Assembly (NCBI GenBank): GCA_028288585.1
Contig: JAQBNL010000084.1
Coordinates: 1 to 64,000, forward strand
DNA length: 64,000 bases
Reading direction: 5' to 3'
Source: Chitinophagaceae bacterium
Lineage (GTDB): Bacteria; Bacteroidota; Bacteroidia; Chitinophagales; Chitinophagaceae
In this document: positions 18,921 to 35,578 of the stretch, piece after piece
How the letters are laid out: each line of letters opens with the position of its first letter
Position numbering within the stretch: the stretch's first letter is position 1
Translations under genes and position numbers: made by a program
Notes under the pieces: generated by a model
Told to the model about the DNA's origin: nothing
The model's input: the letters and a program-made list of their open reading frames with translations, nothing else
The model's database searches: none

Positions 18921-18944
18921 TCATTTCTCAATTATCTGTTCACA

Positions 18945-19406: not shown

Positions 19407-19441
19407 AATGATGATTTGTACAAAAATAAGGTACAAAATAT

Positions 19442-19476
19442 AAAAGCCTGAAACCAATAAAGGAGTCAGGCTTTTT
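19442..19476. terminator. Bidirectional hairpin terminator
   Basis: AAAAGCCTGA and TCAGGCTTTT make a perfect 10-bp stem with a 14-base loop, and T-runs are present on both strands. It lies upstream of the 18945 gene and separates the core chromosome from the gene-less stretch next to the accessory element. Confidence 0.7.
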
Positions 19477-19823
19477 GTATACAGAAGCCTTGAGTTATCG
19501 AACTTATCCATAGACGACATTTTGGCAACTGAAACTTTCATAAATAACCATAGAAGAGAGCTTTCTCTATTATAGGATTATCCCCTACTTTCCTTCTAAT
19601 ATCAATAATGCTATAATCTATATGTTGAACAATAAAAACATCTTCTTTAAGAAGCAATTGTTTAGAGACCTATAATTCCCCCTTGTCAATAAAGAATAAA
19701 TTTCAAAATTATTTAAGCAAATAAAAAGTTGTGGAATCTCTTTAGGGGGGACTACAAGGATGTACAAACTAAGACCCCGGAGAAGTTGAAACTGCCTTAC
19801 ATAATGAAAACACATATTTAATT
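19477..19823. other. 347-base stretch without a credible gene
   Basis: I see no RNA gene and no ORF with convincing codon pattern here; a 65-codon minus-strand frame at 19618-19815 lacks any recognisable feature. The stretch contains a sequence at 19772-19797 that resembles the 3' end of the tRNA-Met at 33719 (CGGAGAAGTTGAAACTGCC against CGGGGAGCAGACTTGAACTGCC, same orientation). This may be the left attachment site of the accessory element. Confidence 0.4.
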
Positions 19824-20852
19824 TTACAGACCTAATCGGGCTGCCGAAAATCTATCGTCAAAGAAATTAATCTTGCTGTGTGTAAAAGAAGTAGGTACAT
19901 ATTCAAAAGATGCTGCTCGTTCCAACTCATCACAAAGTTGACGCTGGCCATCTACTCCCAATTTATCCCATAATGCAGGAGCAAAAAATGTATTCTCGGC
20001 GCATGAAATTAATATAGATGAAATAGCCTTTTCTAAGGGCAAAGGGGATAAGTTGTTTAACTCATTAAGGAATAAGACACCTTTTTCATCATCTGGAAAA
20101 CATGCCAGAATTATAATAGTTTGATTATTATCTGGTAGAATCGTTAGCATGATATGGGAATATGGTATACTTGGGTCAAGATGATTATTCATCGGTGTAC
20201 CCTTATAGCTAAAGTATGGGCTTATTTGAGATGAGCAGGCAATAGGAAACTTCTTTGGAAGAACATAAGTAAAATAGTCAAGTCCATCATACTGTTGCGC
20301 ATCTAATAAAGCATCTAATTCGGCTTTCACTACTTCACCTTCAACCACACTTATCTCCGCCCCCGCTATCATAGAAGCCAATACATGCTTTGGGATAATT
20401 TTTGTATATTCCGAATTAGTTTTGTTAGCCTTTAGTTCTTCTTTCTTCCTATGATATGAATGAGCAAATGCCCTATAAGAGTGAAGAAAACAATGTTTGT
20501 CGCTATTATCAAAAGGGAAGTTCTCAATCGGTGAAAAAAGAGTAGTATCATGATAATCGCAAAATCCAAAAAATGTAGATGCTACTCCTTTACCAATTGG
20601 CTTTAGGCTTTTGCAGTAATGAGACTCATCAAATTCAGTTTCAGTAAAAGTGTAAATTACTTTATTTCCATTTACGTCTCCTTCAATAATGGAAAGCCTC
20701 CCATTTCTTTGAATACTGTGAGACTGTTTTATATCTCCTTTACAATTTGCTTTATCATGACAAAAACATTCAGTAATCCTACCAGTCTTTTTGAAATCTG
20801 ATAATGATTTTCGCAGCTCAATTGTTTTCTTTTTTATTTCTTCAGGAGTCAT
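19824..20852 (-). CDS. Hypothetical Cys/His-rich (zinc-binding?) protein
   Basis: 342 aa, family not recognised. The N-terminal third has clustered potential metal ligands: Cys29, Cys31, His32, Cys37 and His45 (ECFCHDKANC...SHSIQ), then Cys80, Cys98 and His101 (GFCDYHD), then Cys121, His124. This looks like a treble-clef or HNH-like zinc site. The rest is mixed alpha/beta without membrane segments. It is the leftmost gene of the accessory element and is transcribed towards the chromosome. I have a vague memory of similar proteins in defence-rich regions, not verified. Confidence 0.6.
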   Translation of the reverse strand: MTPEEIKKKTIELRKSLSDFKKTGRITECFCHDKANCKGDIKQSHSIQRNGRLSIIEGDVNGNKVIYTFTETEFDESHYCKSLKPIGKGVASTFFGFCDYHDTTLFSPIENFPFDNSDKHCFLHSYRAFAHSYHRKKEELKANKTNSEYTKIIPKHVLASMIAGAEISVVEGEVVKAELDALLDAQQYDGLDYFTYVLPKKFPIACSSQISPYFSYKGTPMNNHLDPSIPYSHIMLTILPDNNQTIIILACFPDDEKGVLFLNELNNLSPLPLEKAISSILISCAENTFFAPALWDKLGVDGQRQLCDELERAASFEYVPTSFTHSKINFFDDRFSAARLGL

Positions 20853-20944
20853 TATGCAAAATTCCGATAAAAAATGAACTTCAGAATCAAACTGAGCCTA
20901 ATATTTACCTCTTGAAATAATCAAAAACAATTATCTCTATCAAT

Positions 20945-21397
20945 TTAATATTTTGTCCCGCTTCCATCAAATTGTTCTGTCGTATAAACAGAGGCAAATG
21001 TAGCTGCTGGAGATAATAAGGAGCTATAAATTATAACATTTAGTGTAGTACCTACAACACCACCCTGTATGGAATTAATAACATTGAAAGTATACGAACC
21101 TGAAGTATTGTCCTCTTGCTTAGAGTATAGCTGTAAATCTAACTGCTTAGTATTTATTGGCGCAATTGTAGAAATTGCTAACCTTGCTTTATCGCTTCCT
21201 AAATAAGTTATTGAAAATGAAAAATTTGGGTCTGTACCATTTGTTACTGTTGAACCATTTACTTTAGTCCAAGTTAATGTACCCCCTTTATAGTTGCCGG
21301 AAATATTTTGAATATTTATAGAAGAAGAATCAGAATTACTTTTTGAGCAAGATTGTAATATCATAAATAGCAAGATTCCTTTGAATATTATTTTCAT
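20945..21397 (-). CDS. Small hypothetical lipoprotein
   Basis: 150 aa. The leader MKIIFKGILLFMILQSC ends in a lipobox Cys (17), then a Ser-rich linker and a beta-rich domain (~30-150) of the kind seen in small Bacteroidota surface lipoproteins. No family. Its start overlaps the stop of the upstream gene by four bases, so the two are translationally coupled. Confidence 0.65.
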   Translation of the reverse strand: MKIIFKGILLFMILQSCSKSNSDSSSINIQNISGNYKGGTLTWTKVNGSTVTNGTDPNFSFSITYLGSDKARLAISTIAPINTKQLDLQLYSKQEDNTSGSYTFNVINSIQGGVVGTTLNVIIYSSLLSPAATFASVYTTEQFDGSGTKY

Positions 21398-21777
21398 AAT
21401 AAGGCAGGTTGTTGTTTTTCTAATATATCTAAAGCAACGTCTCTGTCTACCAAAAAGAAACAGTTTACATCATGTTCATTTATTTCTCCATAACCATTAT
21501 GGACGGCTTCCCATGCCGTATGCGCTATATATTCTTTAAGAGAATTGTATTCTGCATTCTCAAATGAAGAAATCCACAACCAACTTTCTACTTCCTCATT
21601 ATAAACGGCGAAATAAAAAGTATTAGAGCTAAATCTTTCTTTACACAAATTGAAGACTACTTCATTTTTAATATGAATACAAAATTCCATTTGGTCAGGG
21701 AAACTTCCTTCATGCCTAAATGTGTCAAAATGTAAGAAGTAATCAATATCGGAAATATCTATTTTTTGATTCTTCAT
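21394..21777 (-). CDS. Hypothetical protein coupled to lipoprotein
   Basis: About 127 aa from the Met at 21777 (MKNQKIDISDIDYFLHFD); an upstream Met at 21810 would add 11 residues. Acidic, soluble, no signal peptide or motif recognised. It is first in a two-gene unit with the lipoprotein and reads divergently from the XRE regulator across the inverted-repeat region at 21830-21933, so it is probably controlled by that regulator. Confidence 0.55.
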   Translation of the reverse strand: MKNQKIDISDIDYFLHFDTFRHEGSFPDQMEFCIHIKNEVVFNLCKERFSSNTFYFAVYNEEVESWLWISSFENAEYNSLKEYIAHTAWEAVHNGYGEINEHDVNCFFLVDRDVALDILEKQQPALL

Positions 21778-21829
21778 TTTAGAAAGCTTTAAACCTGGAT
21801 TAGAATGCAATAACCAAAGGCTTGCCGAT

Positions 21830-21933
21830 GCAAATTTGCTTACTGTATTCTTAGAAATTAGCTCAGATACAATTCGATTCCAAATATAAAACGAAATTAC
21901 TCATAAGGCAAATTTGCTCTAATCTAAGAATAC
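21830..21933. promoter_or_regulatory. Symmetrical operator-like repeats between divergent genes
   Basis: The 10-bp palindrome GCAAATTTGC occurs twice (21830-21839 and 21908-21917). Five or six bases after each copy stands one arm of an exact 11-bp inverted repeat, GTATTCTTAGA (21845-21855) and TCTAAGAATAC (21923-21933). The arrangement lies exactly between the minus-strand gene at 21777 and the XRE gene at 21956, as expected for binding sites of a dimeric HTH regulator. Confidence 0.65.
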
Positions 21934-21955
21934 ACAAAACATTCACTTTGTTCCT

Positions 21956-22183
21956 GTGAAGTATTACAGGGACGAAAAATTCATAAAGCAATTCGGAAAG
22001 CGACTTAAAGAGGTTAGGTTGGCCAAAAGCGTAAGCCAAGAGGAATTAGCAGGACGAACAGGTTTTGAGTTAAGCCAAATAGGAAGAATTGAAAGGGGTA
22101 CTGTAAATACGAGTCTTAGTCACGTAGCTGCAATAGCGAAGGCATTAAAAGTTAAGCCTGCAGAATTATTTTCCTTTGATTAG
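21956..22183 (+). CDS. XRE-family HTH transcriptional regulator
   Basis: 75 aa, essentially only the helix-turn-helix domain: VSQEELAGRTGFELSQIGRI forms helices 2 and 3, and RGTVNTSLSHVAAIAKALKV the last two. The start is GTG. Similar minimal XRE proteins act as dimeric repressors of neighbouring genes, and the repeats at 21830-21933 directly upstream are the likely target. The next gene starts 15 bases downstream. Confidence 0.88.
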   Translation: MKYYRDEKFIKQFGKRLKEVRLAKSVSQEELAGRTGFELSQIGRIERGTVNTSLSHVAAIAKALKVKPAELFSFD

Positions 22184-22198
22184 AAGTATATTTAGACT

Positions 22199-22975
22199 AT
22201 GATAATTAAAGGGATTCCCCTATATATTTTGAAATATTTATCACAACATGAAAATTCCTCAAGAAATTCATTTGGGACAATACATCATCATATACCTGTT
22301 AAATCAAGGGCTGAATTTGACCAAGCTATAAAAGGTTTATATGAAGATGGATACATAGATATTACAACAGAAGGGAACTTTGATATTTATCAAATAAAAG
22401 ATAAGGGGAGAGAGTATATAAGTGAATATGATGACTACGCCATAACAGATGTATTTAATGGAAACTATGATTTTGCTATCCTAAAGTTTTTATATGATAT
22501 GGACGAGCCTGTCCCTACCAATTTTTTTCCTGAATCTATCCTATCTCATGCTCCCCGTGATGGGAAGGGTATGAATGATTCAGTTGCTCTTAGAACTTAT
22601 ATAGATTACCAAAGCTCAATTGATAAGTATGTTAAAGTAATTGACAATAATAAATATCAAATAAATCAACTTGGTATAAAATATTATGACCATTTAGTAG
22701 GTATGGATTCCAAAGAAACCCAAATAGAATTTAAGCCTCTTATACATATTGATAACTCAACACATGATTATTCTACTCATACGGTAGGTAGTGATAACTT
22801 AGTAACCACTCATTCTGAATTAGAAAAAGTCCAACAGTCTACAGGATCAGAGACTATCCAAAAGTTAAATGACATACCCTCATCCAAATCTTCTCTGATT
22901 AAAAAAATAATTATTGGAGTTATAGTGGGACTTTTGGTAATTCTAATAGGTCATTATGTTTTTAATATAGGATAA
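22199..22975 (+). CDS. Hypothetical winged-helix-like, tail-anchored membrane protein
   Basis: 258 aa. Residues ~1-75 read like a winged-helix fold (ILKYLSQHENSSRNSF..., FDQAIKGLYEDGYIDI, YQIKDKGREYI), and a second similar half follows (~88-165: AILKFLYDMDEPVP..., KYQINQLGIKYYDHL). A polar linker leads to one C-terminal membrane helix (LIKKIIIGVIVGLLVILIGHYVF). It could tether a DNA- or protein-binding module to the membrane. Probably co-transcribed with the XRE gene; ends 12 bases from the stop of the convergent operon. Confidence 0.6.
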   Translation: MIIKGIPLYILKYLSQHENSSRNSFGTIHHHIPVKSRAEFDQAIKGLYEDGYIDITTEGNFDIYQIKDKGREYISEYDDYAITDVFNGNYDFAILKFLYDMDEPVPTNFFPESILSHAPRDGKGMNDSVALRTYIDYQSSIDKYVKVIDNNKYQINQLGIKYYDHLVGMDSKETQIEFKPLIHIDNSTHDYSTHTVGSDNLVTTHSELEKVQQSTGSETIQKLNDIPSSKSSLIKKIIIGVIVGLLVILIGHYVFNIG

Positions 22976-22987
22976 ATGATAACCTTT

Positions 22988-24022
22988 TTATTCGGATAAG
23001 TCTATCATAATGTGAAACATTTCCACGTCTTTATCATGAGTAGATTTTGCTATTTTCAAATGTCTTACATCATCAAATTTCATTGATAAGTCTTCAAAAT
23101 CCTTAGATAGGTCAATTTTAAATTTAGCAGGAAAAGAACAAGATGATACATTTGATTTATAATCAGTCCATGTTTTATCAAAATTCTTAGGTGCTCCTTT
23201 GTAATAGATTATCATATAATATCTTTCGAGAGACTTAGCATATTTAAAACATTTGAGAATATGCTTTTGCGTATTACCTTTATTTTTCCCCTTCAGAATT
23301 AATGCTTCAAATAAGGCAATGGTAATATTTCCAGACTGAATAGTTATATCAGTTTCACCTGCACTTTTACCAGTAGGAGAACTGCCAGTACGAGCCTGGT
23401 CATGAATGCTCCATGCCCAAACTTGAAATCTTAATCTTAAAATCGCTAAAAGCAAGTCATTAAATCTGTCCTCATCTGGAATTTTTTTAATCCCATGTAT
23501 TTTATCAACCAACACCTTTGAAGCCTGAACAATCTCATTCAAGATAAACTCGCTTAAAGCTCTTTTATCATTTACAATATCTGGAGTAATTAAAGGAAGG
23601 TATTTAGGCTGTAAACTTCTAAGGTTAATCAAGCTATTTTTCAAGCTTTGAAATAACTTTGTTGTCCCCGAATTATCACTTAAATCTTGAATTACTGGCG
23701 AAATAATTTTTCCAGTATCATTTAGATAGTCTACCGATTTGTTTATATAATCAAAAGCCAATTCATGTAATTCTCTTTCAATGTAAAAATTATAGACTGT
23801 AGGAATAATTTGTTCCTCGTATAAATAAGTTTTTGATAGTTTACTGATAGTAAGGTCAAAGCTTGAAACGTCTTTTACTGAGGCATAATAAATAAGCTTA
23901 TTGCTACTTATAGGCTCAGCAAAGTCTAATAAACCCTGCTTCTGTTCATCACTAAGTCCATTCAGAAAATTATCCCAATCTTGATTAGCGTGATTTAGTA
24001 AAGTCTTATTCATTTGTTTCAA
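22988..24022 (-). CDS. PD-(D/E)xK nuclease-like protein (gene 3 of operon)
   Basis: 344 aa. A helical N-terminal region (~1-200) is followed by a segment of the restriction-endonuclease-like pattern: SAGETDITIQSGNITIALFEALIL, with Glu223, Asp225 and Glu239, then a helix with KHILKCFKYAKSLERYY and a strand MIIYYKG. The third motif reads E-A-L instead of E-x-K, so the catalytic lysine is missing or displaced, and nuclease activity is only a suggestion. Its start overlaps the 946-aa gene by 17 bases, showing translational coupling. No known family name recalled. Confidence 0.65.
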   Translation of the reverse strand: MKQMNKTLLNHANQDWDNFLNGLSDEQKQGLLDFAEPISSNKLIYYASVKDVSSFDLTISKLSKTYLYEEQIIPTVYNFYIERELHELAFDYINKSVDYLNDTGKIISPVIQDLSDNSGTTKLFQSLKNSLINLRSLQPKYLPLITPDIVNDKRALSEFILNEIVQASKVLVDKIHGIKKIPDEDRFNDLLLAILRLRFQVWAWSIHDQARTGSSPTGKSAGETDITIQSGNITIALFEALILKGKNKGNTQKHILKCFKYAKSLERYYMIIYYKGAPKNFDKTWTDYKSNVSSCSFPAKFKIDLSKDFEDLSMKFDDVRHLKIAKSTHDKDVEMFHIMIDLSE

Positions 24023-26846
24023 TGGCTTTTAATGTTTCAGCCTGATAAATATGAAAAGCGTAACGAATATTTTTTGTTTCTTCGGATAAGAGAGTCCTCA
24101 ATATCTTAATCGCTTCATCATAATTTTTGTCATTATAAAGTTTAAATAAAGCAATGAAGAAAGATTTTAAATTTTCTGCCCTTTTGTTTGCAGTTGGATA
24201 AATATCTTTCATTGGAGGAACAGGTACATTACTGAGCTTACTAAAATCTTTTTCTTTAAATGCCAAAAGAAGATTTATTTCTAATAAGAAAATATTATTC
24301 CTTTCATCATTATATTTTACTTTCTGGAAATGCTTTTGAATTCGTTCAATTAGCGGTTTGGCTAACTCCCAATGTTTCTCAGAATCTACCGCCTCAATTA
24401 TAGCATGTTCAAGCTCTGTAGTAGTCGAACTTGTTTTAATAAAATCCTCTATTTTAATATCGCTAATCCTACTTGAAATAAGGTTTTTAAGTTCTTTGGA
24501 GTCCAAAATATTAATTGCTGACAACAGTCTACCTATGTCAAGAGTTTTAGAAAAAAAATCTTCTACAAATTCATTAATACCCTTATGTTTAAACAGATTG
24601 ATACTTCTATAAAGCAAAGAAGTTAAGGGTTGATAATACATATTGTTGCCGAAGACACTAAACCTTTCATTAAAAATATCAATTCGGCTTTCAGATATTT
24701 CATCAATAGAATAGGTTATGGAGTATTTTTTTATTAAGCTTTCTAATTCATCTAATGTTTCTTTTACAGGTAGTCCATCAATCTCATATGTATCTTTCTT
24801 TTGGTTGATAGAAATAAAAGCAAGTAATAATGATTTTACATAATACTTTAATTTTTCAAATTGGTCTTTATTTTGTTCATCATATTTATTGCTATCGGTT
24901 TTAAAATTTAAAGATGTAGAGAAGCTCTGATTAAATTTTTTAAGAAGATTATTTTTTTGAAAATGCAAATACAAATAGCCCCAATCAATAATTTCAAACC
25001 CGAATTCACTCATCCATCTTCTGGCTGATTTTTTATCAGTACCCGATGGATAAACCTGAACAATAATTTCTGTAGCAGTATAATAGTCTACTAAAAAACT
25101 TTCCAATAATAAAATCAATTCTCGTGAAACATCCTTTATAGCCTCTTGTTGTTCATCTGAGATTTCAGTTTTAGATATACGAAGATTTGCAAGTTTCAAA
25201 ATTTCAATACCCACATCAATTAAGGCACAGTTAAGATTCAAATACTCTGTGTGGCTCAAATTTCTTTTTGTAAATCTTTCTTTTAAATAATTAAAAACAT
25301 ATGGGAATAGATAAAAAATCAACCTTGGATTGATTAGAGGTCTTGGGTATGTATAGGTTGATGTAATTCTTTTATTACCTAATTTTTGTAATGTATCATC
25401 ATATCTTTTTCTGATTGAAATATGATGAATAGAGCTATTCCTATCATTGGTATTTAAGCTAAATACTTTGTTCGCAATTTCAAGTAGGATTTTAGGTATA
25501 ATTTCAGCTTGTTCTTTCTCCAGATTATGAACAGAAACAAGTTCTTCTAAAGTCAAATCAAACATCTGAAGCCATAATTCATTTTTTAATTCAAATCCCG
25601 CCTCAAGCCTTCTGTCAATGTTTGATTGCTCAGGTATAAGGACATTGTCAATTTCAATCTTGTCAATTTGCTTAAAAGCAATAGGATTTAATTCTGAATC
25701 TGTTAAAAGGTATGGAATTACTTCAGCAAATTGTTTGGGTATGTCTTGATATAATGTCCATATTAAAAATGGACGTGAAGTATCCCTAAAAATTCTTAAA
25801 ATATCTTGATATGGAGTTGGATAGTTTGCATCATTTTTAATAATCAACCGAAGAAGTAAAAAGCAAAAACTTCTTGTTTTTTGATAATCAAAAGCATCAT
25901 AAATTCTCCATTTATGATAATTGACACTTTCAATAAAATCAAAAGGTGTTTCATAATTAAATTCAATGCTGGGAATTTCTGTTTTAATATCTATATGTTG
26001 ATACGCATTTGCATCAAGCCAAATTTTATTGAATTCTGAACTTGATTTTAATAAGTCGTCTTCAGAGTTCAAAAAAGAAATTGCTGATTCAGAAATCTTA
26101 TCAATGTTTTGTTTGCTTAGATAAGCTCGCAAATTGTCAACCCAAATTTTAGTTCCTCTTATAAGTTTAAAATATTTTCTAAATTCTACTTCCGTGCTTT
26201 CTTCCCCGCCTACAAATAGCCAAAGAGTAGATGCAATCTCGTTTCGCAGATGCCTTATATATTCGTTGTCCTTCCAATAGAAATATCCATTTACAGAATC
26301 ATAACCTATTATATCTCGTTCTTCAAAGAATTTAATACTGAGTAAGGCTGAACCTTTTGTTCTAATTATTTCATTCAGTTTCTCAAGAGAGATAGACAGT
26401 TTGGAGTCGTTAAAACTTTTGTTATAATAAATTTGTAAGCATCTAATTAAATCCTTCTTATCTTCTGGGATTACAATTGGTTTTCCTTCAGTCTCATAAT
26501 GTCCGACTTTCCAAATAAAGTGACGAACTAACTCAGGAAGAACTACTTCGCCTGCAATTATTCTAATCCAATTAATTTTCTCAAAATCATCAAAGGTGAG
26601 ACTGGTTGTATTCGCTTGGTTATATTCCTCAATAGTTTTAAGAAAGGTGTCTTTATCTCTTGTAACGAAATTTAGATTTAAAATTATGTGAGAGATAACA
26701 AAGGCAAGATTAAATTTAAGATTCTCAGACTTTATATTAGTATCATTATAATTATTATAAGAATTTTTATCACTTGCTAAATATCTTAATCTTTCACTAA
26801 GAGATTTTAATTGTTCTTCAATATTATGTGAACTTGGGAATTGCAT
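24006..26846 (-). CDS. Large helical protein of unknown function (gene 2 of operon)
   Basis: 946 aa, soluble, low in Gly and Pro, almost entirely helical by eye. No Walker A, no nuclease motif and no membrane segment was found. The C-terminal ~120 residues (LLLAFKEKDFSKL..., FFIALFKLYNDKNYDEAIKI, AFHIYQAETLKAIE) look like TPR-type helical hairpins. Such size and shape fit a scaffold or sensor between the two nuclease-like partners encoded on either side: 26 bases downstream of the HNH gene and overlapping the next by 17. I do not recognise a family. Confidence 0.65.
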   Translation of the reverse strand: MQFPSSHNIEEQLKSLSERLRYLASDKNSYNNYNDTNIKSENLKFNLAFVISHIILNLNFVTRDKDTFLKTIEEYNQANTTSLTFDDFEKINWIRIIAGEVVLPELVRHFIWKVGHYETEGKPIVIPEDKKDLIRCLQIYYNKSFNDSKLSISLEKLNEIIRTKGSALLSIKFFEERDIIGYDSVNGYFYWKDNEYIRHLRNEIASTLWLFVGGEESTEVEFRKYFKLIRGTKIWVDNLRAYLSKQNIDKISESAISFLNSEDDLLKSSSEFNKIWLDANAYQHIDIKTEIPSIEFNYETPFDFIESVNYHKWRIYDAFDYQKTRSFCFLLLRLIIKNDANYPTPYQDILRIFRDTSRPFLIWTLYQDIPKQFAEVIPYLLTDSELNPIAFKQIDKIEIDNVLIPEQSNIDRRLEAGFELKNELWLQMFDLTLEELVSVHNLEKEQAEIIPKILLEIANKVFSLNTNDRNSSIHHISIRKRYDDTLQKLGNKRITSTYTYPRPLINPRLIFYLFPYVFNYLKERFTKRNLSHTEYLNLNCALIDVGIEILKLANLRISKTEISDEQQEAIKDVSRELILLLESFLVDYYTATEIIVQVYPSGTDKKSARRWMSEFGFEIIDWGYLYLHFQKNNLLKKFNQSFSTSLNFKTDSNKYDEQNKDQFEKLKYYVKSLLLAFISINQKKDTYEIDGLPVKETLDELESLIKKYSITYSIDEISESRIDIFNERFSVFGNNMYYQPLTSLLYRSINLFKHKGINEFVEDFFSKTLDIGRLLSAINILDSKELKNLISSRISDIKIEDFIKTSSTTTELEHAIIEAVDSEKHWELAKPLIERIQKHFQKVKYNDERNNIFLLEINLLLAFKEKDFSKLSNVPVPPMKDIYPTANKRAENLKSFFIALFKLYNDKNYDEAIKILRTLLSEETKNIRYAFHIYQAETLKAIETNE

Positions 26847-26872
26847 TTATTAAATATCTTAATTTTTAGAAG

Positions 26873-27904
26873 TTACTTTATAACCATGTTTTTCCACAAG
26901 CTATGTGAAGCGAAGCGCCATTTCTTTTGTGTCACATAATCCCAGTTATATAGATGTTCTATATTTAAATGTGAAGACCCCTCTTTATTTTGACACAGGA
27001 TTGCTTCTATATTCTCATAAATTTCCAAGCCGGGATAACTTAACCCAGGTAAAGCTATTGCGAATTGTTTCTTAACCCCGTTAACAAAAAGATTAAAGAT
27101 TACAAGAAAACATTGCAACTCTTTAGGGCTATTTACTATGTTTAATCCAGTAAATTTCTCAGGAAAATCATTCTTAAGCCAAAAGACTTTCGGAAGAATT
27201 GGCTTTTCGGGGTTTAAGATTTGCTCCCGTATTTTGTAAAGGTTACGATTGATTAAAAAGCCATGACCGAATTTTTGAAAAGCATATAAATAAGCAATTT
27301 TTAAAAGAGCAATTTCCCCATAACGTTCATTGGACTTAGGATGAATATCCATATTAAAATTAAGTTTCCAATTTATGCCTGCATCAAACATATCATGTCC
27401 CTCCAAAAATGGGTCATATGCCTTATAAGTATAGGTTTTATTTGCAAAAAATCTCTCTCTATGTATTGGACTTGAGTTTTCCCCATCAACGTTAATCTTA
27501 ACCCTTCCATCCTCCTCGACAGACATATCTGCTGCCACCCTACTTCCATCATTATTAAGGGTAACTCTTATTTTTGAATTAGGAGTATTATTAAAAAAAT
27601 TCCACTCTTTTAATTGCAAAAGCAAATGGTTGTCTATTTTATACCCAGCTTTTGAATTACAATCTCTACAGGTTAAAATACCTTGTTTCCCTCCAAGCGA
27701 AAAAGGAGGATTGTGGTCGAATGTTAAGGGGTTGGAAGAGGTTTTGTTAAGAGTATCTTTTGTAAATAGATTAAAGCACAATGGACATATATAACCTTCC
27801 TTAAAATCGGGCTCGAATTTTAAGCTTGGATTCTCTTTTACCCATGAAAGATTTTGAGAATAAACATCATATAATTTCAGCTTTCTTTTTTGGTCTTTAG
27901 TCAT
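26873..27904 (-). CDS. HNH-endonuclease-domain protein (gene 1 of operon)
   Basis: 343 aa. Residues 40-90 form an HNH/treble-clef domain: CPLC (40-43), the DHNPP core (Asp63, His64, Asn65) after FD, and CRDCNSKAG (79-86). The C-terminal ~250 residues are an unrecognised alpha/beta region with PGLSYPGLEIYENIEAI. First gene of a three-gene minus-strand operon. HNH activity on DNA is a family-based expectation; the target and the role of the large C-terminal part are unknown. Confidence 0.75.
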   Translation of the reverse strand: MTKDQKRKLKLYDVYSQNLSWVKENPSLKFEPDFKEGYICPLCFNLFTKDTLNKTSSNPLTFDHNPPFSLGGKQGILTCRDCNSKAGYKIDNHLLLQLKEWNFFNNTPNSKIRVTLNNDGSRVAADMSVEEDGRVKINVDGENSSPIHRERFFANKTYTYKAYDPFLEGHDMFDAGINWKLNFNMDIHPKSNERYGEIALLKIAYLYAFQKFGHGFLINRNLYKIREQILNPEKPILPKVFWLKNDFPEKFTGLNIVNSPKELQCFLVIFNLFVNGVKKQFAIALPGLSYPGLEIYENIEAILCQNKEGSSHLNIEHLYNWDYVTQKKWRFASHSLWKNMVIK

Positions 27905-28080
27905 TATTTCTCATAGGTTGTTAGTAATATTTGAATGTAAGATAAAATAATCACACCTGTATATGTGAAATATGTAGCACTAAAAAAAGATGGTGTAAAT
28001 AACAACGTACTTCCTCGAACAAAATTTATGTAGACTTTAGAATAAAAATTATTATTTTGTTGACACCAAAATTAGCAACT

Positions 28081-28509
28081 ATGAATTTCAACTTATTTTT
28101 AGGAGAACAAGTTATTATAAGTTCAGATAATAATACTATTACCTTAACTAATATGAGAATAAGAAAGGAATTAAGGTCGTGGGGTAATAGTTTCAATCAA
28201 AGTATACTACTTCAACATATTACCTCATGTGAAGTAAAACACAAATCGAATCCTATATTTCTTATTTTGTCAGCTATATCTATTTTAGCTTCTGTTTACT
28301 ATTACAGCCAACCGTATGGTGAAAGCCAAGGGCAAATTCCTTTACTATTTGCTGCTGCATTTGCTTTAATTTATTTTCTTGATAGGCGTAGCTACATAGT
28401 CATAGGATCACCTTCAACAAAAATGTATATAAAAGTTTCTGGAGGTCGAACATCATCGTTAGACTTTATTTCAAGTGTTGAAGCAGCAATTGTAGATTTG
28501 AAAAAATAA
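28081..28509 (+). CDS. PH-like membrane protein, hypothetical
   Basis: 142 aa from ATG at 28081; an upstream TTG at 28057 is less likely. N-terminal ~60 residues form strands with a basic loop (VIISSDNNTITLTNMRIRKE, SILLQHITSCEVKHKS), then two close membrane helices (IFLILSAISILASVYYY, LLFAAAFALIYFL) and a C-terminal domain with one amphipathic helix. This is the layout of DUF6232/bacterial-PH small membrane proteins. Divergent from the HNH operon; function unknown. Confidence 0.6.
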   Translation: MNFNLFLGEQVIISSDNNTITLTNMRIRKELRSWGNSFNQSILLQHITSCEVKHKSNPIFLILSAISILASVYYYSQPYGESQGQIPLLFAAAFALIYFLDRRSYIVIGSPSTKMYIKVSGGRTSSLDFISSVEAAIVDLKK

Positions 28510-28659
28510 ATAATTTATATTTCTGCACAGGTATGAAAGAAAAATTAAAAGTTGCCTTAAGTTTCGTTATAAAAGGCGAGCTATACTAATTCTAATTCAG
28601 ATAAGTTTAATAGGCGAAATATTGGACGTATTTTTCAATTTAGAAACATTAAAATAACC

Positions 28660-29646
28660 ATGGAAGATATAAGCAAATGCTTGATTACAGGGTTGCCGAT
28701 TAAGAGCTATAAAAAATGTGAAGAAAAGAATCATGGACACAATCCATTTCTGCAGTATAAAGTAGATATAAACTCAAAGGAATACTTTTTTGGGTTTTGC
28801 CTCAATTGCCTTAATGAAACTATCAAGTTTATAGAAGCGAATAAGAAACTCCTTTTTGCTTTGCTACTTAATGGGAAGGAGATTCCAAAAGAGGAAGACA
28901 GCCAAAGCATTTTCGAGAAGCATACATATTTATTACATAAACAAGATTTAGAAAAATTCATTAAGAATAATTCAGTCCTAACTTCTCCGAGCGATAAATT
29001 AGATAATCTATTCTTATCCCTTTCTTCACTACCTAAATATGAGGGTGAAAAAGTTTCTATAAACAATGATATTAACAAAGAAGAATTTTACTTAAAATAT
29101 TACTTTAAGAATAAAGAAGAGCTTGTTTTTTATATAAATACTTTGAATACATCCAAACTATTAGAATTTGAATTTATTAATGACACACCCGTAGCTTTTA
29201 AAGTCACATATGATGGGCTTTTAAAGTCTATCTCTATGCAAGAAGAAGGGATATACGGAAATAGATGTTTTGTGGCTATGTCTTTCGATTCCGATGATGA
29301 GTTTATCTTTAATGAAGTTATTGAGCCAGTTTGTGAAATGTATAATTTCAAGGCTATACGAGTTGATAGGCTGCATCCAGGTACAGAACAAACAATCAAT
29401 GATTTGATTATTGCAGAATTGAAAAAGGCAAAGTTTATTATTGCTGATTTTACAAAAAATAAAAGCGGTGTCTATTTTGAAGCTGGCTATGCATTAGGGA
29501 AAAGTAAGCAAGTTATTTACACTTGTTCAAAAGAACATTTTCAAAACCTACACTTTGACGTAAATCATTTTCCTGTTCTTATTTATGAAACAAAAGAGCA
29601 ACTCAAGGAAATGCTGAAGAATAAAATTGAAGCATACATACTATAG
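28660..29646 (+). CDS. Zinc-finger plus TIR/deoxyribosyltransferase-like domain protein
   Basis: 328 aa. N-terminus: four cysteines (7, 20, 47, 50; GFCLNCLNE) fit a zinc site. The middle is an unrecognised helical linker. The C-terminal domain from residue 201 begins NRCFVAMSFD and contains FIIADFTKNKSGVYFEAGYA with Asp263 and candidate catalytic Glu274. This pattern is shared by nucleoside 2-deoxyribosyltransferase-like and TIR-like proteins; in bacterial defence such domains degrade or modify nucleotides such as NAD+. Activity is inferred. The 3' end overlaps the convergent polymerase-like gene by six bases. Confidence 0.7.
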   Translation: MEDISKCLITGLPIKSYKKCEEKNHGHNPFLQYKVDINSKEYFFGFCLNCLNETIKFIEANKKLLFALLLNGKEIPKEEDSQSIFEKHTYLLHKQDLEKFIKNNSVLTSPSDKLDNLFLSLSSLPKYEGEKVSINNDINKEEFYLKYYFKNKEELVFYINTLNTSKLLEFEFINDTPVAFKVTYDGLLKSISMQEEGIYGNRCFVAMSFDSDDEFIFNEVIEPVCEMYNFKAIRVDRLHPGTEQTINDLIIAELKKAKFIIADFTKNKSGVYFEAGYALGKSKQVIYTCSKEHFQNLHFDVNHFPVLIYETKEQLKEMLKNKIEAYIL

Positions 29647-31167
29647 ATGATTATAGTTAGAAGGTTTTAATTCGTTATATGAAAGACTAAGTGAGGATTT
29701 CTTACTTGATTCAGAAGAACGCAAATATTCAATTTTCAATGTAGGTTTGTAGCCAATATAATATTCTAATTCATTTTTCATTATCGCTTCAATAAGACCT
29801 TCATTTCCCACAGTTGTAATAATGCTATCATGAATTGTAAATAATGGTATCTCAGAATTTATTTCTGTGATTTTTTTGCAAATAATATCTATCATTAAAA
29901 AACTTTCAATTCTCTGTAAAATAATAGGTAGATAATTATACTGAACCGATTTTATGGTTGTATAAAGCTCATAAGGCGTGGAAAAATGTACTTTAAAGGT
30001 TTGGCAAGGGCTATAAAATATGCCCGCTTGAGGCTTTATAAATAGGATAGTTAGTACCTCTTTTTTTACCTTTTCTCGGGAATCAAATTTTTTAGGATAG
30101 ATTGACTGAAAGTGTAGTTGAATATATTCATAGAAAGTCCCTGCTACTACTTGGGAAATGTAATTATTTACGTCAGAATCAATAGGGGCATAGTTTTCCA
30201 GAGAACTTACTAAAGTAATGATATTGTTATATTCTTCCTTTCTTCTTATATCATTATATATTTCTTTATTTAAATACTTTAAATTTAAATTTTCGCCAAG
30301 TGAATCAGCATTACTCCAAAACTCTTTTTTGAAAAAGGCAATACTAAGATATGGTTGGCTATTTTTTAAGTCTATACTTACTAACTGTTCTCCATCATAG
30401 GTAAGAAAATTTCTCAACTCCCTTTTTATGTTCGTTATCGGATTATAAAATCTATGATTATCCCCTACAAATTTATAATAGTGATTTCCTTCATTTAAAG
30501 AATAGACTTTCTGTTGGAAGTCTATAGCTGTGTCTTTAGCATTGAGTATGGGTTTTAATTTGTATTTAATTGCTTCGTCATTCTTTATATCTTGTATTTT
30601 GCTATCTGTGTAATTATCAATCCAAAGACAAGCCCCCTTTGCATCAATGTGCAATTTATTATCATCCCACCATTTGGTTAAATAACCATAGCCCCAAGTG
30701 CTTTTTTTTGATTCTTGTTTCCTTCTTTCTCTATCTCTTTGAATTGCTCGCTTAAATTGAAAGTTATCAAGAAGCACTTGTTTTAATCCTGTACCTGAAT
30801 ACTTATACTTAAACCTAAAGCCTTTGCACTTTTCTCCGAGTATAAAATAATTATCCGTCTCTATAACGCCTGCTTTTAGAAGAAAATTAAGATATTTAGA
30901 ATGGTCATGAAGTATCTTGTTTAGATTCCTACTCGATATTTCAGCATAGTCTGTGTCTTTATCGTTCATTTCTTTACGTTGAGCAATTCTTGCTTTAATA
31001 ATGTAATCACATACAAATAGCAGCTTGTGCCTTTTCAAATTATTGCCTTTGAATGCAAAGCTGTTCTTCAGAATAACTTCGTCAATGTTAAGATTTGCAG
31101 GTATTAAGAAATTGATGTTACTAAGCGGTCTATTTTTTTTCATTTTAAATAACCATGCAAATAACAT
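29641..31167 (-). CDS. Polymerase-palm-like protein of the element (possible family A-type)
   Basis: 508 aa, not assigned to a named family. Three spaced motifs recall the family A/T7-like polymerase palm: motif A LVSIDLKNSQPYLS (Asp266), a fingers-like basic helix REKVKKEVLTILF (364-376) and motif C PLFTIHDSIITT (His446, Asp447). An N-terminal region (~30-130) looks like a helical DNA-binding part, with a basic stretch RDRERRKQESKK at ~144-155. The start could be Met9. A self-encoded polymerase or primase would fit a mobile element. Neither exonuclease domain nor helicase is adjacent. Confidence 0.6.
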   Translation of the reverse strand: MLFAWLFKMKKNRPLSNINFLIPANLNIDEVILKNSFAFKGNNLKRHKLLFVCDYIIKARIAQRKEMNDKDTDYAEISSRNLNKILHDHSKYLNFLLKAGVIETDNYFILGEKCKGFRFKYKYSGTGLKQVLLDNFQFKRAIQRDRERRKQESKKSTWGYGYLTKWWDDNKLHIDAKGACLWIDNYTDSKIQDIKNDEAIKYKLKPILNAKDTAIDFQQKVYSLNEGNHYYKFVGDNHRFYNPITNIKRELRNFLTYDGEQLVSIDLKNSQPYLSIAFFKKEFWSNADSLGENLNLKYLNKEIYNDIRRKEEYNNIITLVSSLENYAPIDSDVNNYISQVVAGTFYEYIQLHFQSIYPKKFDSREKVKKEVLTILFIKPQAGIFYSPCQTFKVHFSTPYELYTTIKSVQYNYLPIILQRIESFLMIDIICKKITEINSEIPLFTIHDSIITTVGNEGLIEAIMKNELEYYIGYKPTLKIEYLRSSESSKKSSLSLSYNELKPSNYNHL

Positions 31168-31228
31168 ACCATTATATCAAACTATGTAATATTTATTTAC
31201 AAATCAATGAAAAATAGATTAAACAATA

Positions 31229-31280
31229 TTTGGTAAATTCATTATTTTGTCTTATCTTTATAGGATAATCAAAATTGATT
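31229..31280 (+). promoter_or_regulatory. Promoter and palindromic operator of the HTH gene
   Basis: TTTG (31229-31232) and TATCTTTA (31253-31260) are 20 bases apart, close to the Bacteroidota TTTG-N19-TAnnTTTG pattern. Directly downstream, AATCAA-AA-TTGATT (31267-31280) is a palindrome with perfect 6-bp arms, placed where a repressor would block transcription. Likely autoregulation by the gene at 31298. Confidence 0.5.
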
Positions 31281-31297
31281 ACCTGTAATAATTAAAA

Positions 31298-31996
31298 ATG
31301 GTTAGAGAAAAAGGAGTGGTAGCTAAGAAGAAGATTAAGACATACGATGGTCTGAGACAAAAATATTTTGGTATACGGGACTTAGGCAAGTTAGATGAGT
31401 CCGCAGTAAGGCAGCTACATTATTGGCTTGATGAAAAAATAGTTTCTGGCAATGACACAAAGGGTTGGCAGAAATTTGATTTTTATACTTTCCTGTGGAT
31501 TTTAATAGTTCGTGAGTTTAAAGTATTGGGTCTTGATAATAATGTATTGATAAAATGCTCGAAGGGCTTATTTGATGGAAAGAATCAGCCCATTAAAGAA
31601 TTTGAAAATGCAATATTGACTTGCTTAAAAGATAGGAAAGGACTATTGTTCCTCCTAAATAAATACGGTGATTTTGAGTTTATTGAAAATATTAAGGATG
31701 TACCTAATAGCCCAAAAGCAAGACCGTATATGACTTTTGTTGTAATAGATATTACTTTGATTTTACTTCAATTTTTAAGTGTCAAAGATTTCTATGGATA
31801 TATAAAGGAGCATGGACTACTGAAAGAAAGAGAGATACAAGTTTTAAATGTCCTTCATGAGCATACAAATGCGATGGTGACAGTTAAATTTTTAAAAGAC
31901 CAAGTAACCATCACTGATAAGACAGATAGTATCGAGCAATTTTTGGGTTTAATATTACACCAAGGAAACTATAAAACAATAGATATACAGATATAA
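31298..31996 (+). CDS. MerR-like HTH protein of the element
   Basis: 232 aa. Near the N-terminus KYFGIRDLGKLDESAVRQLHYW matches a MerR-like/winged-helix DNA-binding pattern, preceded by a Lys-rich tail (VVAKKKIKT). The remainder is helical and without known motif. It lies upstream of the recombinase on the same strand and has a palindrome over its own promoter, suggesting control of element excision or its own expression. Family not identified beyond HTH. Confidence 0.6.
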   Translation: MVREKGVVAKKKIKTYDGLRQKYFGIRDLGKLDESAVRQLHYWLDEKIVSGNDTKGWQKFDFYTFLWILIVREFKVLGLDNNVLIKCSKGLFDGKNQPIKEFENAILTCLKDRKGLLFLLNKYGDFEFIENIKDVPNSPKARPYMTFVVIDITLILLQFLSVKDFYGYIKEHGLLKEREIQVLNVLHEHTNAMVTVKFLKDQVTITDKTDSIEQFLGLILHQGNYKTIDIQI

Positions 31997-32006
31997 AAGA
32001 TGAGCG

Positions 32007-32174
32007 ATGAAAAAACTTACACTACTTCAATTAAAACAATTTAGCGGCTTTGAAAATATTGATGATAAGATTGCATTATACATTATTGAATCTTTATTTC
32101 AATTTTCTGTAATTGCCTTTAACTTCTTTCACCTAAATAATTCAAAGCAAAGTGGAGAATATAGATATAATTAA
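32007..32174 (+). CDS. 55-aa small protein overlapping recombinase start
   Basis: ATG at 32007 to TAA at 32172; starts MKKLTLLQLKQFSGFENIDD, then a helix (KIALYIIESLFQFSVIAFNF). It ends 22 bases inside the recombinase gene in another frame, which suggests translational coupling, and begins 10 bases after the HTH gene stop. Intact and evenly composed, but short; no family known. Confidence 0.45.
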   Translation: MKKLTLLQLKQFSGFENIDDKIALYIIESLFQFSVIAFNFFHLNNSKQSGEYRYN

Positions 32175-33759
32175 GAGCCTACTTATAAAAGATATTATAG
32201 TAGAAGATACAGCAGGTAAAAATGTTGTTATATATACGAGGGTTTCATCTAAAGAACAGGCAGATAATAACGGCAGTTTAGAATCACAGAAGATGTATTG
32301 TGAAAAGTTAGCTGCCAGCAGTAATTACGCTATAGTAGAATACTTTGGCGGTACTTATGAATCTGCACAAAAAGATGAACGTAATGAGTTTGTAAAGATG
32401 TTGAACTTTATAAAATCATCACCCAAAAAAATCCATTACATAATAGTTTATTCACTTGACAGATTTTCACGTACTGGCCCTAACGCTATATTTCTTTCTT
32501 CAGAGCTTAGAAAAACAAACGTACATATACAGTCATGCCTACAAAATATTGATACCAAAACTTCAAGTGGAGTTTTACAACAGAGCATACATTTTATATT
32601 TAGTAATTATGAGAATGAGCTAAGAAAAGAAAAATGTGTTGCAGGTATGAAGGAAAAATTGAAGAAGGGTTTTTGGTTTGGTAAAGCCCCTTTAGGTTAT
32701 GAATTTTCTCCTAATCGTGGAGAACAAAAGATAATTATTAATCCAATCGGTAACATAGTAAGACAAGCTTTTTTACTTAAAGCAGAACAAGGATTAACCA
32801 ATAAAGAAATATCTGAAAGAAGCAAAGCTTTAGGATATGAGATAAAGGAAAAGAGGTTTACAGACATCTTTAGAAATCCTTTTTATTGTGGTTATATTCA
32901 TAATAATATATTAGGGGGAGAGATTGTTTTAGGCAATCATGAAGCACTTATATCGGAAGAAATTTTTCTTAAAGTGAATAATATCATTTCAAAATATCCT
33001 ACCAATTTTACGCAAAGGAAGACCGATGAACATTTACCATTAAAGAGGTTTATCAAATGTGAAAACTGCGGAACAACATGGGTAGGGTATTTAGTAACTA
33101 AGAAAAATGCCTACTATTATAAGTGTAATAAAAAGGGTTGTTTGTGCAACAGAAATGCCTCTAAAATGCACGATAAGTTTCAAGACTACATTTCCTCCTT
33201 TTCAATAAATGAATCCTTTATTGAGCCCCTAAAGCTTCAGTTGTCATATACTTTTTCATCTATGAATCAAGGTAGCGAAAAAGAGAAACTATCATTAGAA
33301 AATAAGTTAAAAGAAGTGGGGCAAAAAATAGATAAGGTAGAAGAAAGATTTGCTTTGGGTGAAATTGACGATAAAGAAGTTTATAATAAGATACGGAGTA
33401 AGTTCTTAGAGGATTACAATCAAATTGAAGGTATGATTAGAAGGGTGGATATTAAATTATCGAACCCTGAAAACTTTATAAATTATTCTGTTAAGCTTTC
33501 TTCAAAACTTAATACCATGTGGAGTTGTAGCAACTTTGATATGAAACAAAAACTTCAAAGACTTATGTTTCCAGAGGGTGTGACTTACGATTTCAAAAAT
33601 GACAGTTATCGAACCTGCAAAGTAAATTCTGTTTTTACTGTAATTGCAGGACAGGCAAGGCTTTTAGAAGAACAAAAAAGCGGATTATCACCTTACTATG
33701 ATGAAAAATCCGCTTCGGTATCGGGGAGCAGACTTGAACTGCCGACCTTCGGGTTATGA
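32152..33759 (+). CDS. Large serine recombinase (site-specific integrase)
   Basis: 535 aa from a GTG start. Resolvase domain: VIYTRVSSKEQADNN with the nucleophile Ser32, and YSLDRFSRTGPNA. Recombinase domain: FWFGKAPLGYEF. Zinc ribbon: CENCGTTW...CNKKGCLC. A coiled coil follows (LSLENKLKEVGQKIDKVEER). The last ~13 codons (ending SRLELPTFGL) are antisense to the tRNA-Met gene, so the gene terminates inside its presumed target site. It should integrate and excise the element. The natural C-terminus before integration would differ, since the tail is donated by the chromosome or the attachment site. Confidence 0.93.
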   Translation: MENIDIIKSLLIKDIIVEDTAGKNVVIYTRVSSKEQADNNGSLESQKMYCEKLAASSNYAIVEYFGGTYESAQKDERNEFVKMLNFIKSSPKKIHYIIVYSLDRFSRTGPNAIFLSSELRKTNVHIQSCLQNIDTKTSSGVLQQSIHFIFSNYENELRKEKCVAGMKEKLKKGFWFGKAPLGYEFSPNRGEQKIIINPIGNIVRQAFLLKAEQGLTNKEISERSKALGYEIKEKRFTDIFRNPFYCGYIHNNILGGEIVLGNHEALISEEIFLKVNNIISKYPTNFTQRKTDEHLPLKRFIKCENCGTTWVGYLVTKKNAYYYKCNKKGCLCNRNASKMHDKFQDYISSFSINESFIEPLKLQLSYTFSSMNQGSEKEKLSLENKLKEVGQKIDKVEERFALGEIDDKEVYNKIRSKFLEDYNQIEGMIRRVDIKLSNPENFINYSVKLSSKLNTMWSCSNFDMKQKLQRLMFPEGVTYDFKNDSYRTCKVNSVFTVIAGQARLLEEQKSGLSPYYDEKSASVSGSRLELPTFGL

Positions 33760-33792
33760 ATCCGATGCTCTAACCAGCTGAGCTACCCCGAC
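33719..33792 (-). tRNA. tRNA-Met (anticodon CAT)
   Basis: On the minus strand a full cloverleaf can be drawn: acceptor GTCGGGG/CCCCGAT (first pair G-T), D arm GCTC...GAGC, anticodon loop TTCATAA with CAT, T arm GGCAG-TTCAAGT-CTGCT. CCA is not encoded. One anticodon-stem pair (31-39) is A-C. Elongator or initiator type cannot be decided firmly; the A-T/G-T ended acceptor and D arm fit an elongator. Its 3' half is the integration site of the element. Confidence 0.93.
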
Positions 33793-33827
33793 ATTTTGGG
33801 CGGCAAAGATAATGTATTGAGTGTAGC

Positions 33828-35514: not shown

Positions 35515-35538
35515 TTTGTAAATTACTAATTGAATAAT

Positions 35539-35567: not shown

Positions 35568-35578
35568 TGGAATAGAAA

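What the first reader, a model, noticed from the sequence alone, without database searches (positions are those of the whole stretch)
22988..27904. Three-gene HNH / 946-aa helical / PD-(D/E)xK-like operon: candidate undescribed defence system
Three minus-strand genes are tightly packed (26-base gap, then a 17-base overlap), so they act together. The first has an HNH zinc/nuclease domain (Cys40, Cys43, Asp63-His64-Asn65, Cys79, Cys82). The last has a degenerate PD-(D/E)xK pattern (Glu223, Asp225, Glu239, with E-A-L replacing E-x-K). Between them lies a 946-aa helical protein with no Walker motif and TPR-like end helices. The operon sits in an AT-rich integrative element with HTH regulators and a TIR/NDT-like protein. 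I cannot match it to any defence system I know (not Septu, Gabija, Hachiman, Zorya, Lamassu or three-component ABC systems). One nuclease, a large sensor-like scaffold and a possible second nuclease-fold partner is a plausible abortive-infection or DNA-degradation layout. This is inference; only the motifs are seen.
Basis: partly seen in the sequence, partly recalled or inferred. Interest (0 to 1): 0.8.

Follow-up and report, generated by a model that had tools for sequence, protein, structure and literature searches.

The report
Split solenoid-nuclease, likely phage-defence protein
Two of the three flagged genes are one large helical protein with a cutting-enzyme-like domain, split in two here; that domain also ends proteins of known or suspected bacterial defence systems, so this is probably an undescribed anti-virus protein, while the third gene (an HNH nuclease) looks like a separate neighbour.

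Summary
The three minus-strand ORFs and motifs are real, but 'three-gene system' needs revision. (1) The 946- and 344-aa proteins are parts of one protein: in 7 distinct Bacteroidota loci one 1343-1361-aa ORF covers both; 3 further loci hold broken or incomplete copies. The window's split lies inside that ORF, with an 8-nt start/stop overlap. (2) The last ~170 residues model as PD-(D/E)XK-like, with D225, E239, H254, K257 and H337 in 17 of 17 rows; Lys is never at E+2, K257 may replace it. (3) The module also ends a Lamassu LmuA, three Roco proteins and ~1250-aa proteobacterial proteins, one beside an OLD ATPase. (4) The HNH protein is no conserved partner: 0 of 11 HNH-relative loci and 0 of 10 fusion loci hold the other. 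Best explanation: a solenoid sensor without NTPase plus nuclease effector, probably abortive-infection defence, on a serine-recombinase element at tRNA-Met. Function was not tested.

The parts
24006..26846 (-). 946-aa all-helical (solenoid-like) protein, equivalent to the N-terminal ~1000 residues of a ~1350-aa single protein in relatives
   Evidence: AlphaFold model all helices, pLDDT 62; Foldseek finds only generic helical-repeat proteins with low TM-scores
22988..24013 (-). 341-aa protein from ATG (344 aa from TTG at 24022): TPR-like N-terminal part plus C-terminal PD-(D/E)XK-like module
   Evidence: match to the C-terminal end of the single-ORF relatives
22991..23509 (-). nuclease-like module: GExD (E223, D225), E239, H254xxK257xxxY261, H329, H337 (numbering from TTG)
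   Evidence: 17-row alignment; recovered by a profile from which its row was removed, 1.8e-46
24006..24013 (-). 8-nt stop/start overlap (ATGAATAA) between the two genes; point where the protein that is single elsewhere is split
26873..27904 (-). 343-aa HNH (HNH_5-like) protein, 26 nt upstream of the solenoid gene; perhaps co-transcribed, not a conserved partner
32152..33759 (+). large serine recombinase of the carrying element; its 3' end runs into tRNA-Met
33717..33792 (-). tRNA-Met; similarity to two congeneric genomes stops at 33718, taken as the right border of the element

Best explanation
The 946-aa and 344-aa genes encode the two pieces of one sensor-effector protein: a long alpha-solenoid without an NTPase, then a TPR-like linker and a C-terminal nuclease of PD-(D/E)XK type. 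Likely working: the solenoid holds the nuclease off; binding of an unknown trigger (a phage protein or DNA structure) frees or clusters the nuclease, which cuts DNA or RNA and stops phage growth, probably by abortive infection. Shown: the gene pair equals one protein elsewhere; the fold arrangement in a model; the invariant acidic/Lys/His signature; the module's sharing with a Lamassu LmuA, Roco proteins and an OLD-linked protein. Inferred: catalytic activity, the lysine's move to the next helix, sensing by the solenoid, defence role. The HNH gene is probably an independent nuclease gene of the same mobile element.
For: Single ORFs of 1343-1361 aa match the 946-aa protein (20-25% identity, E 1e-17 to 5e-10) and then the 344-aa protein (24-36%, E 2e-38 to 5e-25) in 7 distinct loci. 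Module: G222, D225, E239, H254, K257, Y261, F281, Y288, H337 in 17 of 17 rows. Profiles with one row removed recover each of the 6 rows so tested (1.8e-46 to 2.2e-24 with Z fixed at 4000). Model of the 341-aa protein: helices, then alpha-beta-beta-beta-alpha-beta; Foldseek's first row is the restriction enzyme OkrAI (E 0.019, prob 0.90), with Kpn2I, DrdV and BamHI lower. Module in a protein matching LmuA (2e-53) beside a LmuB (3.8e-152). Defence-type genes near the fusion in 6 of the 8 loci where some neighbours were scanned: Septu PtuA/PtuB in L022, PDC-M62A/B in L036 and a partial PDC-M54A match in L044, AbiEi and ApeA in L041, AbiEi/AbiEii in L046 and ABC-3C CTD12 in L048.
Against: No function has been tested. 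The Lys of E-x-K is missing in all 17 rows. The model is middling (pLDDT 70, pTM 0.51), Foldseek gave no match at E <= 0.001, and unrelated folds sit among its rows. The PADLOC LmuA match covers residues 28-492 of 561, so only part of the module (405-560). Only chosen neighbours were scanned and no random-gene control was run, so the defence association is not quantified; in 2 of the 8 loci (L004, only a weak KwaB match; L047, one gene scanned) no clear defence gene was seen, and the neighbours of L037 and L042 were not scanned. The window's copy is distant from the rest and its split may be a defect or an assembly error.
Confidence: 0.62

Rival explanations
1. A real three-gene defence system: the HNH protein acts with the solenoid and the REase-like protein as a second nuclease.
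For: 26-nt gap, same strand. HNH proteins of other families lie near the fusion in 4 of 10 loci: 8 nt upstream in Yeosuana (L041), two genes upstream in G248 (L022), about 5.5 kb upstream in Lacibacter (L046), and a convergent HNH of a PDC-M62-type pair in L036. PF01844 finds no HNH in the window's genome at E <= 0.001, though that model misses HNH_5 proteins such as this one.
Against: The window's HNH family itself: 0 of 11 relative loci have a solenoid/module relative, 0 of 10 fusion loci have a relative of this HNH. The HNH genes near fusions are of different families, and in the other 6 of 10 fusion loci none was seen among the neighbours looked at. The best relative (L058) and L059 have no evident partner.
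Confidence: 0.2
2. The REase-like module is inactive and serves as a docking or DNA-binding part; toxicity, if any, comes from partners (HNH, LmuB, OLD, Roco).
For: No Lys at E+2 in any of 17 rows. A review says that the C-terminal domains of LmuA possibly dock to the other components while effectors are N-terminal (PMC10586767, passages), and the module is C-terminal in L038.
Against: The candidate catalytic residues are constant through very different contexts, as expected of an active site; no common partner was seen beside the single-ORF relatives.
Confidence: 0.17
3. The window's pair is a broken copy: a frame change (in nature or in the assembly) split one gene, and the pieces do nothing. 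(Not exclusive of the best explanation for the family.)
For: The 7 intact relatives are single ORFs; the two frames are offset by one register with no residues missing by the alignments; broken copies exist in L037 and L046.
Against: No homopolymer at the joint, an ATG placed in an overlap typical of coupled genes, both frames otherwise open and with coding-type base composition.
Confidence: 0.25
4. Not defence but upkeep or control of the mobile element (addiction, exclusion of rival elements).
For: Carried by a recombinase element here and by plasmids elsewhere.
Against: Shared module with a Lamassu LmuA and neighbourhoods with several unrelated defence genes.
Confidence: 0.1

Closest known systems
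Lamassu (LmuA/LmuB/LmuC; ABC-3C, DdmABC)
   Same: A protein matching LmuA in L038 ends in the same nuclease-like module (37.6% over 141 aa); PD-(D/E)XK and other REase-type effectors are known in Lamassu (PMC10586767, passages)
   Different: No LmuB or other ATPase found with the window pair; the sensor is a 946-aa solenoid; no PADLOC Lamassu hit to the window pair
Bacterial Roco proteins (LRR-Roc-COR) with a C-terminal nuclease-like module
   Same: Same C-terminal module (L039, L063, L070)
   Different: GTPase switch and LRRs in place of a bare solenoid
PD-(D/E)XK superfamily (nearest solved folds OkrAI, Kpn2I, DrdV, BamHI)
   Same: Core topology in the model; D225 and E239 at or in its strands
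   Different: E-x-K lysine absent; invariant HxxK in the next helix and two conserved C-terminal His (17 and 16 of 17)
Septu, Gabija, PDC-M62 and other ATPase-nuclease pairs
   Same: Nuclease effector plus large partner; Septu and PDC-M62 lie next to fusion relatives
   Different: No ATPase with the window pair, no family match
REase effectors of NTP-dependent conflict systems (Kaur et al. 2020, PMC7159879; section 11 and passages seen)
   Same: REase-fold effectors swapped between systems; the paper mentions a previously unreported REase clade
   Different: Could not be compared: no sequence of that clade was at hand, so identity with it is not excluded

Membership tests
PD-(D/E)XK nuclease superfamily | alpha-beta-beta-beta-alpha-beta core | tested here: met
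   Model of 341-aa protein: H182-199, E202-204, E223-227, E230-239, H245-257, E264-271; moderate confidence, pLDDT 70; no Foldseek match at E <= 0.001
PD-(D/E)XK nuclease superfamily | D...(D/E)-x-K catalytic motif | tested here: inconclusive
   D225 and E239 17 of 17; Lys at E+2 in 0 of 17; K257 17 of 17 might replace it
PD-(D/E)XK nuclease superfamily | metal-dependent nuclease activity | not testable with these tools
   needs biochemistry
Lamassu | LmuB SMC-like ATPase in the operon | tested here: not met
   No PADLOC LmuB hit among the 10 window proteins scanned; no Walker A in the 946-aa protein; no blastp match (E <= 1) of L038 LmuB to ORFs in the first 45 kb of the window
Lamassu | LmuA effector | tested here: inconclusive
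   The 344-aa protein shares the C-terminal module with a protein matching LmuA but has no PADLOC LmuA hit itself
Lamassu | LmuC middle component | tested here: inconclusive
   Only a weak hit of the convergent 258-aa gene at 22199-22975 to LmuC (0.0023)
Septu / Gabija / STAND (Avs-like) systems | ATPase/NTPase component | tested here: not met
   No PADLOC or Pfam hit for the pair and no Walker-A pattern in the 946-aa protein
HNH nuclease (first protein) | paired Cys plus D-H motif | tested here: met
   C40, C43, D63-H64, C79, C82, N83; HNH_5 6.6e-6, just under the curated cut-off
   0 of 11 HNH-relative loci and 0 of 10 fusion loci hold the other member; of the 11, two lie on contigs under 4 kb, one matches over 119 residues only, and L060/L061 are near-copies

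The most novel reading that the evidence does not exclude
A so far unnamed kind of NTPase-less immune receptor: a bare alpha-solenoid that senses infection, carrying at its C-terminus a REase-fold nuclease clade with its own signature (GExD - E - HxxKx(3,4)Y - H - H) that bacteria trade between solenoid proteins, Lamassu, OLD-linked proteins and Roco GTPases. The sensing part varies while the killing part is kept.
Probability: 0.45. Interest if true: 0.72.

Novelty: new variant of a known kind. Interest (0 to 1): 0.55.

Why it matters
If true, a single, easily cloned protein (or pair) would be a complete sensor-plus-nuclease defence unit without any ATPase or GTPase, and the shared nuclease module would link Lamassu, Roco and OLD-associated systems through one effector. 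The Roco cases would give a concrete, testable output for bacterial relatives of the human LRRK2 family. The invariant residues give direct point-mutant tests.

Tried and rejected
Family libraries: Pfam, PADLOC, NCBIfam and PHROGs gave nothing convincing for the 946- and 344-aa proteins (best for the 344-aa protein NCBIfam WD_0964 at 17.8 bits against a cut-off of 100). The single-ORF relatives that were scanned were blank or insignificant too: Pfam for L022 and L041, PADLOC for L022, NCBIfam for L041, L022, L048, L036. Solved-structure sequence searches gave nothing useful (best E 0.076). The 50 VIA-align rows shown for the 341-aa model are helical-repeat proteins aligned within model residues 1-140, so the nuclease part was hardly tested there. 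Three viral-contig scans (HNH, 946-aa, module alignment) found no relative, and the phage collection had none of the 946-aa protein or the L041 fusion; the scan patterns were few, so this is weak. Close DNA of the Salmonella relative is absent from the E. coli collection by megablast; no protein search is offered there.

Rejected: the GxxxxGKS string in the 344-aa protein as a Walker A (it lies in the loop before GExD, where many relatives have S-x-x-G-K); four weak hits (G749, G816, G751, G620) that match only the helical part were not counted as relatives; weak blast rows (946-aa protein against an L016 ORF, E 0.56; 344-aa protein against an L011 carboxylase ORF, E 0.054; L041 fusion against the L058 HNH protein, E 0.007) were taken as chance. 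Repeats of 33500-34100 inside 10000-33000: one 13-mer outside the tRNA, likely chance, so the left border of the element stays open. Rfam shows only the tRNA in 18000-36000; promoter counts are at the chance level and no terminator was found in 22700-28300.

Literature: searches listed no paper that I recognised as describing this protein family; the library holds only open-licence papers. PMC7159879: section 11 and passages; PMC10586767 and PMC13092281: passages only; all others only as search listing. PMC13092281 reports 14 PD-(D/E)XK proteins found in E. coli; I could not compare them with this module.

Full report
Observation. The three ORFs exist at the stated places: HNH protein 26873-27904, 946-aa protein 24006-26846, 344-aa protein 22988-24022, all on the minus strand. 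The gap is 26 nt. The overlap is 17 nt if the third gene starts at TTG, but an ATG at 24013 overlaps the preceding stop by 8 nt (ATGAATAA) and is the likelier start. The listed residues are in place. The longest ORF in 200 shuffles of the stretch is 124 aa, so the ORFs are not chance. Of the three, Pfam and PHROGs recognise only the HNH domain; PADLOC and NCBIfam give nothing significant.

Two of the three genes are one protein elsewhere. A search of 195 genomes of the window's family with the 946-aa protein gave two matches besides itself, both in open frames of about 1350 aa. Those ORFs (1343 aa) match the 946-aa protein over residues 216-958 and then the 344-aa protein over residues 1003-1336. 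Further searches with the 344-aa part (5 of 395 genomes of the phylum sample, its own included, with an alignment: 10 of 395 genomes of the class sample, its own included, of which 6 cover the nuclease part and 4 hit only the helical part and were set aside) and one scan of the named genome collection (9 loci, 3 of them the same as earlier ones) brought the set to 10 distinct loci. Seven hold one intact ORF of 1343-1361 aa: L004 (nearly identical to L005/L045, counted once), L022, L036 (= L043), L041 Yeosuana marina, L044 Marinifilum MAG, L047 Bacteroidales MAG, L048 Flavobacterium sasangense. L046 Lacibacter and L037 are broken into pieces, and L042 is cut by a contig end and masked stretches. 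Among themselves the seven are 33-58% identical; the window pair is 20-25% (946 aa) and 24-36% (344 aa) identical to them. By the alignments the window's split falls inside this ORF with no residues lost. Whether it is a natural, coupled split or a frame defect (natural or from assembly) cannot be told from one sequence. There is no homopolymer at the joint.

The C-terminal module. AlphaFold with 10 related rows gives for the 341-aa protein a helical part (residues 1-172) and then helix-strand-strand-strand-helix-strand-helix-strand-strand (pLDDT 70.2, pTM 0.51). Foldseek has no match at E <= 0.001; its first row is the restriction enzyme OkrAI (E 0.019, probability 0.90), and Kpn2I, Bax1, DrdV and BamHI stand further down among unrelated rows. 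A second look lists helical-repeat proteins for the N-terminal part (NprR, Z 10.0, rmsd 3.3, 112 aligned), which the tool warns can be common at such Z for helical repeats. In an alignment of 17 modules, G222, D225, E239, H254, K257, Y261, F281, Y288 and H337 are in 17 of 17, E223, Q209 and H329 in 16, D189, R211, S215, A240, Y273 and K323 in 15 (numbering from TTG; the rows include one from a broken gene and one from a frame without a start). Lysine is never at E+2; K257 in the next helix is the natural candidate to replace it (inference). Profiles with one row removed still find it in each of 6 rows tried (E 1.8e-46 to 2.2e-24, Z fixed at 4000). In a scan of 729 ORFs from loci fetched up, the 19 hits at E <= 1e-3 are all proteins already known to carry the module.

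Where else the module occurs. (a) L038: at the end (residues 405-560) of a 561-aa protein that matches PADLOC LmuA (2e-53, residues 28-492), overlapping by one base a 705-aa LmuB (3.8e-152): a Lamassu-type operon. (b) Roco proteins with LRR, Roc, COR-A and COR-B: L039, Photobacterium toruni L063 and Spirosoma linguale L070, the last 81% identical to L039. (c) Large proteins of about 1250-1270 aa in Burkholderia pyrrocinia (83 nt after an OLD-type ATPase, PADLOC Old 1.5e-84), Salmonella Senftenberg and Edwardsiella ictaluri, which have no Pfam or PADLOC match and only marginal similarity to the window's solenoid family (hmmsearch 1.4e-3 Salmonella, 8e-4 Edwardsiella, 0.12 Burkholderia, in a set of 8 targets). 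(d) Shorter proteins: L024 514 aa, Acinetobacter 218 aa beside insertion sequences, and a 177-aa frame in Chryseobacterium (L023/L049). In the tree the window groups with the solenoid fusions (93/85) apart from the Lamassu, Roco and Burkholderia rows; this branch is below the tool's starred level and several end branches are long.

Neighbourhoods. Near the fusions: Septu PtuA (3.6e-216) and PtuB (1.5e-115) in L022; PDC-M62A (2.1e-108) and PDC-M62B (5.3e-80) plus a type II methyltransferase in L036; AbiEi and ApeA on either side in L041; a partial PDC-M54A match in L044 (2.2e-10); AbiEi/AbiEii in L046; ABC-3C CTD12 with Mrr, and DUF2326, in L048. In L004 only a weak KwaB match (8e-4) and in L047 nothing (one neighbour scanned, Pfam only). 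So 6 of the 8 loci with some neighbours scanned; L037 and L042 were not scanned. Only chosen neighbours were scanned and no random-gene control was run.

The HNH gene. Relatives of the window's HNH protein were found in 5 of 195 family genomes and 7 of 395 phylum genomes, its own included each time, and on two plasmids. In 11 loci other than the window none carries a convincing relative of the 946/344 pair or of the fusions; two of these loci are under 4 kb, one (L062) matches over 119 residues only, and L060/L061 are near-copies. None of the 10 fusion loci carries a relative of this HNH at E <= 0.1. The best relative (44% identity, L058) has no evident partner and lies by what reads by eye as a photolyase gene; in L060 and L061 it follows a large gene by 14 nt, in L060 shown to be of Eco57I type. 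HNH proteins of other families do lie near fusions in L041 (8 nt upstream), L022 (two genes upstream), L046 (about 5.5 kb) and L036 (convergent, part of a PDC-M62 pair), so help from assorted HNH nucleases is not excluded.

The carrier. Compared with 16-kb stretches of two congeneric genomes, similarity runs through the aminotransferase and tRNA-Met and stops at 33718, the 3' end of the tRNA gene. A serine recombinase (Pfam Resolvase 1.1e-25) sits just inside. The 342-aa gene at 19824-20852 had no match in the 4 related genomes searched, without a positive control. The left border was not found.

Mechanism (inference except where stated). The solenoid has no Walker-A pattern, so any switch is more likely binding than NTP hydrolysis. 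The likeliest working is a solenoid that senses an infection product and releases or clusters the C-terminal nuclease, leading to nucleic-acid damage and abortive infection. Its use in a LmuA, beside an OLD ATPase and behind Roco GTPases fits an effector that different sensors can drive. A review (PMC10586767, passages) describes LmuA effectors as diverse, REase-type domains among them, and mostly N-terminal with C-terminal docking domains; the last is a point against reading a C-terminal module as the effector, and the fixed acidic, Lys and His residues are the answer to it.

Novelty. No family model or paper found here describes the solenoid-nuclease protein (paper searches). One paper mentions an unreported REase clade among effectors of NTP-dependent systems (PMC7159879 section 11), and identity with it is open. 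I rate it a new variant of a known kind (modular sensor-effector defence proteins).

Noticed in passing
L039 7639-10455; L063 5673-8411; L070 3721-6498: Roco proteins (LRR-Roc-COR) in Bacteroidota and Photobacterium end in the same nuclease-like module: a possible nuclease output for bacterial relatives of the LRRK2 family.
   Followed up: partly
L063 1770-13392: The Photobacterium toruni Roco gene lies inside a type I-F CRISPR-associated, Tn7-like transposon gene block, between the TniB-family and TniQ genes.
   Followed up: no
L038 7489-11947: Lamassu-type operon (LmuB plus LmuA) whose LmuA carries the module at its C-terminal end, not at the N-terminus where a review places the effector.
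   Followed up: partly
L041 4431-6179; L022 4950-6701: A 582/583-aa protein (67% identical) without convincing family match precedes the fusion gene in two loci; possible partner in that branch.
   Followed up: no
L011, L013, L058-L061: Relatives of the window's HNH protein have Asp (TLEDxPP) in place of the motif His that the window copy keeps (TFDHNPP).
   Followed up: no
window 29641-31167: 508-aa protein without family match; motifs read by eye (SIDLKNSQPYLS, FTIHDSI) recall motifs A and C of family-A DNA polymerases (recalled, not tested); one distant relative on a Hymenobacter plasmid (26%).
   Followed up: partly
window 28660-29646: 328-aa TIR/NDT-like protein (PADLOC TIR effector 1.3e-12; phrog_16139 1.1e-26) on the strand opposite to the HNH gene: possibly a second defence gene of the element.
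   Followed up: no
window 22199-22975: Convergent 258-aa protein with weak winged-helix-type and LmuC hits and a C-terminal hydrophobic stretch, ending 12 nt from the 344-aa gene's end.
   Followed up: no
window 32152-33792: The serine recombinase ORF ends 43 nt inside the tRNA-Met gene on the other strand, next to the element's right border.
   Followed up: partly
L022 12220-14254; L048 7639-12807: Two fusion genes from different genomes sit beside the same flanking genes (three shared, 51-94% identical), suggesting a shared integration hotspot.
   Followed up: no
window 19824-20852: 342-aa Cys/His-containing protein without family match; no match in the four related genomes searched.
   Followed up: no
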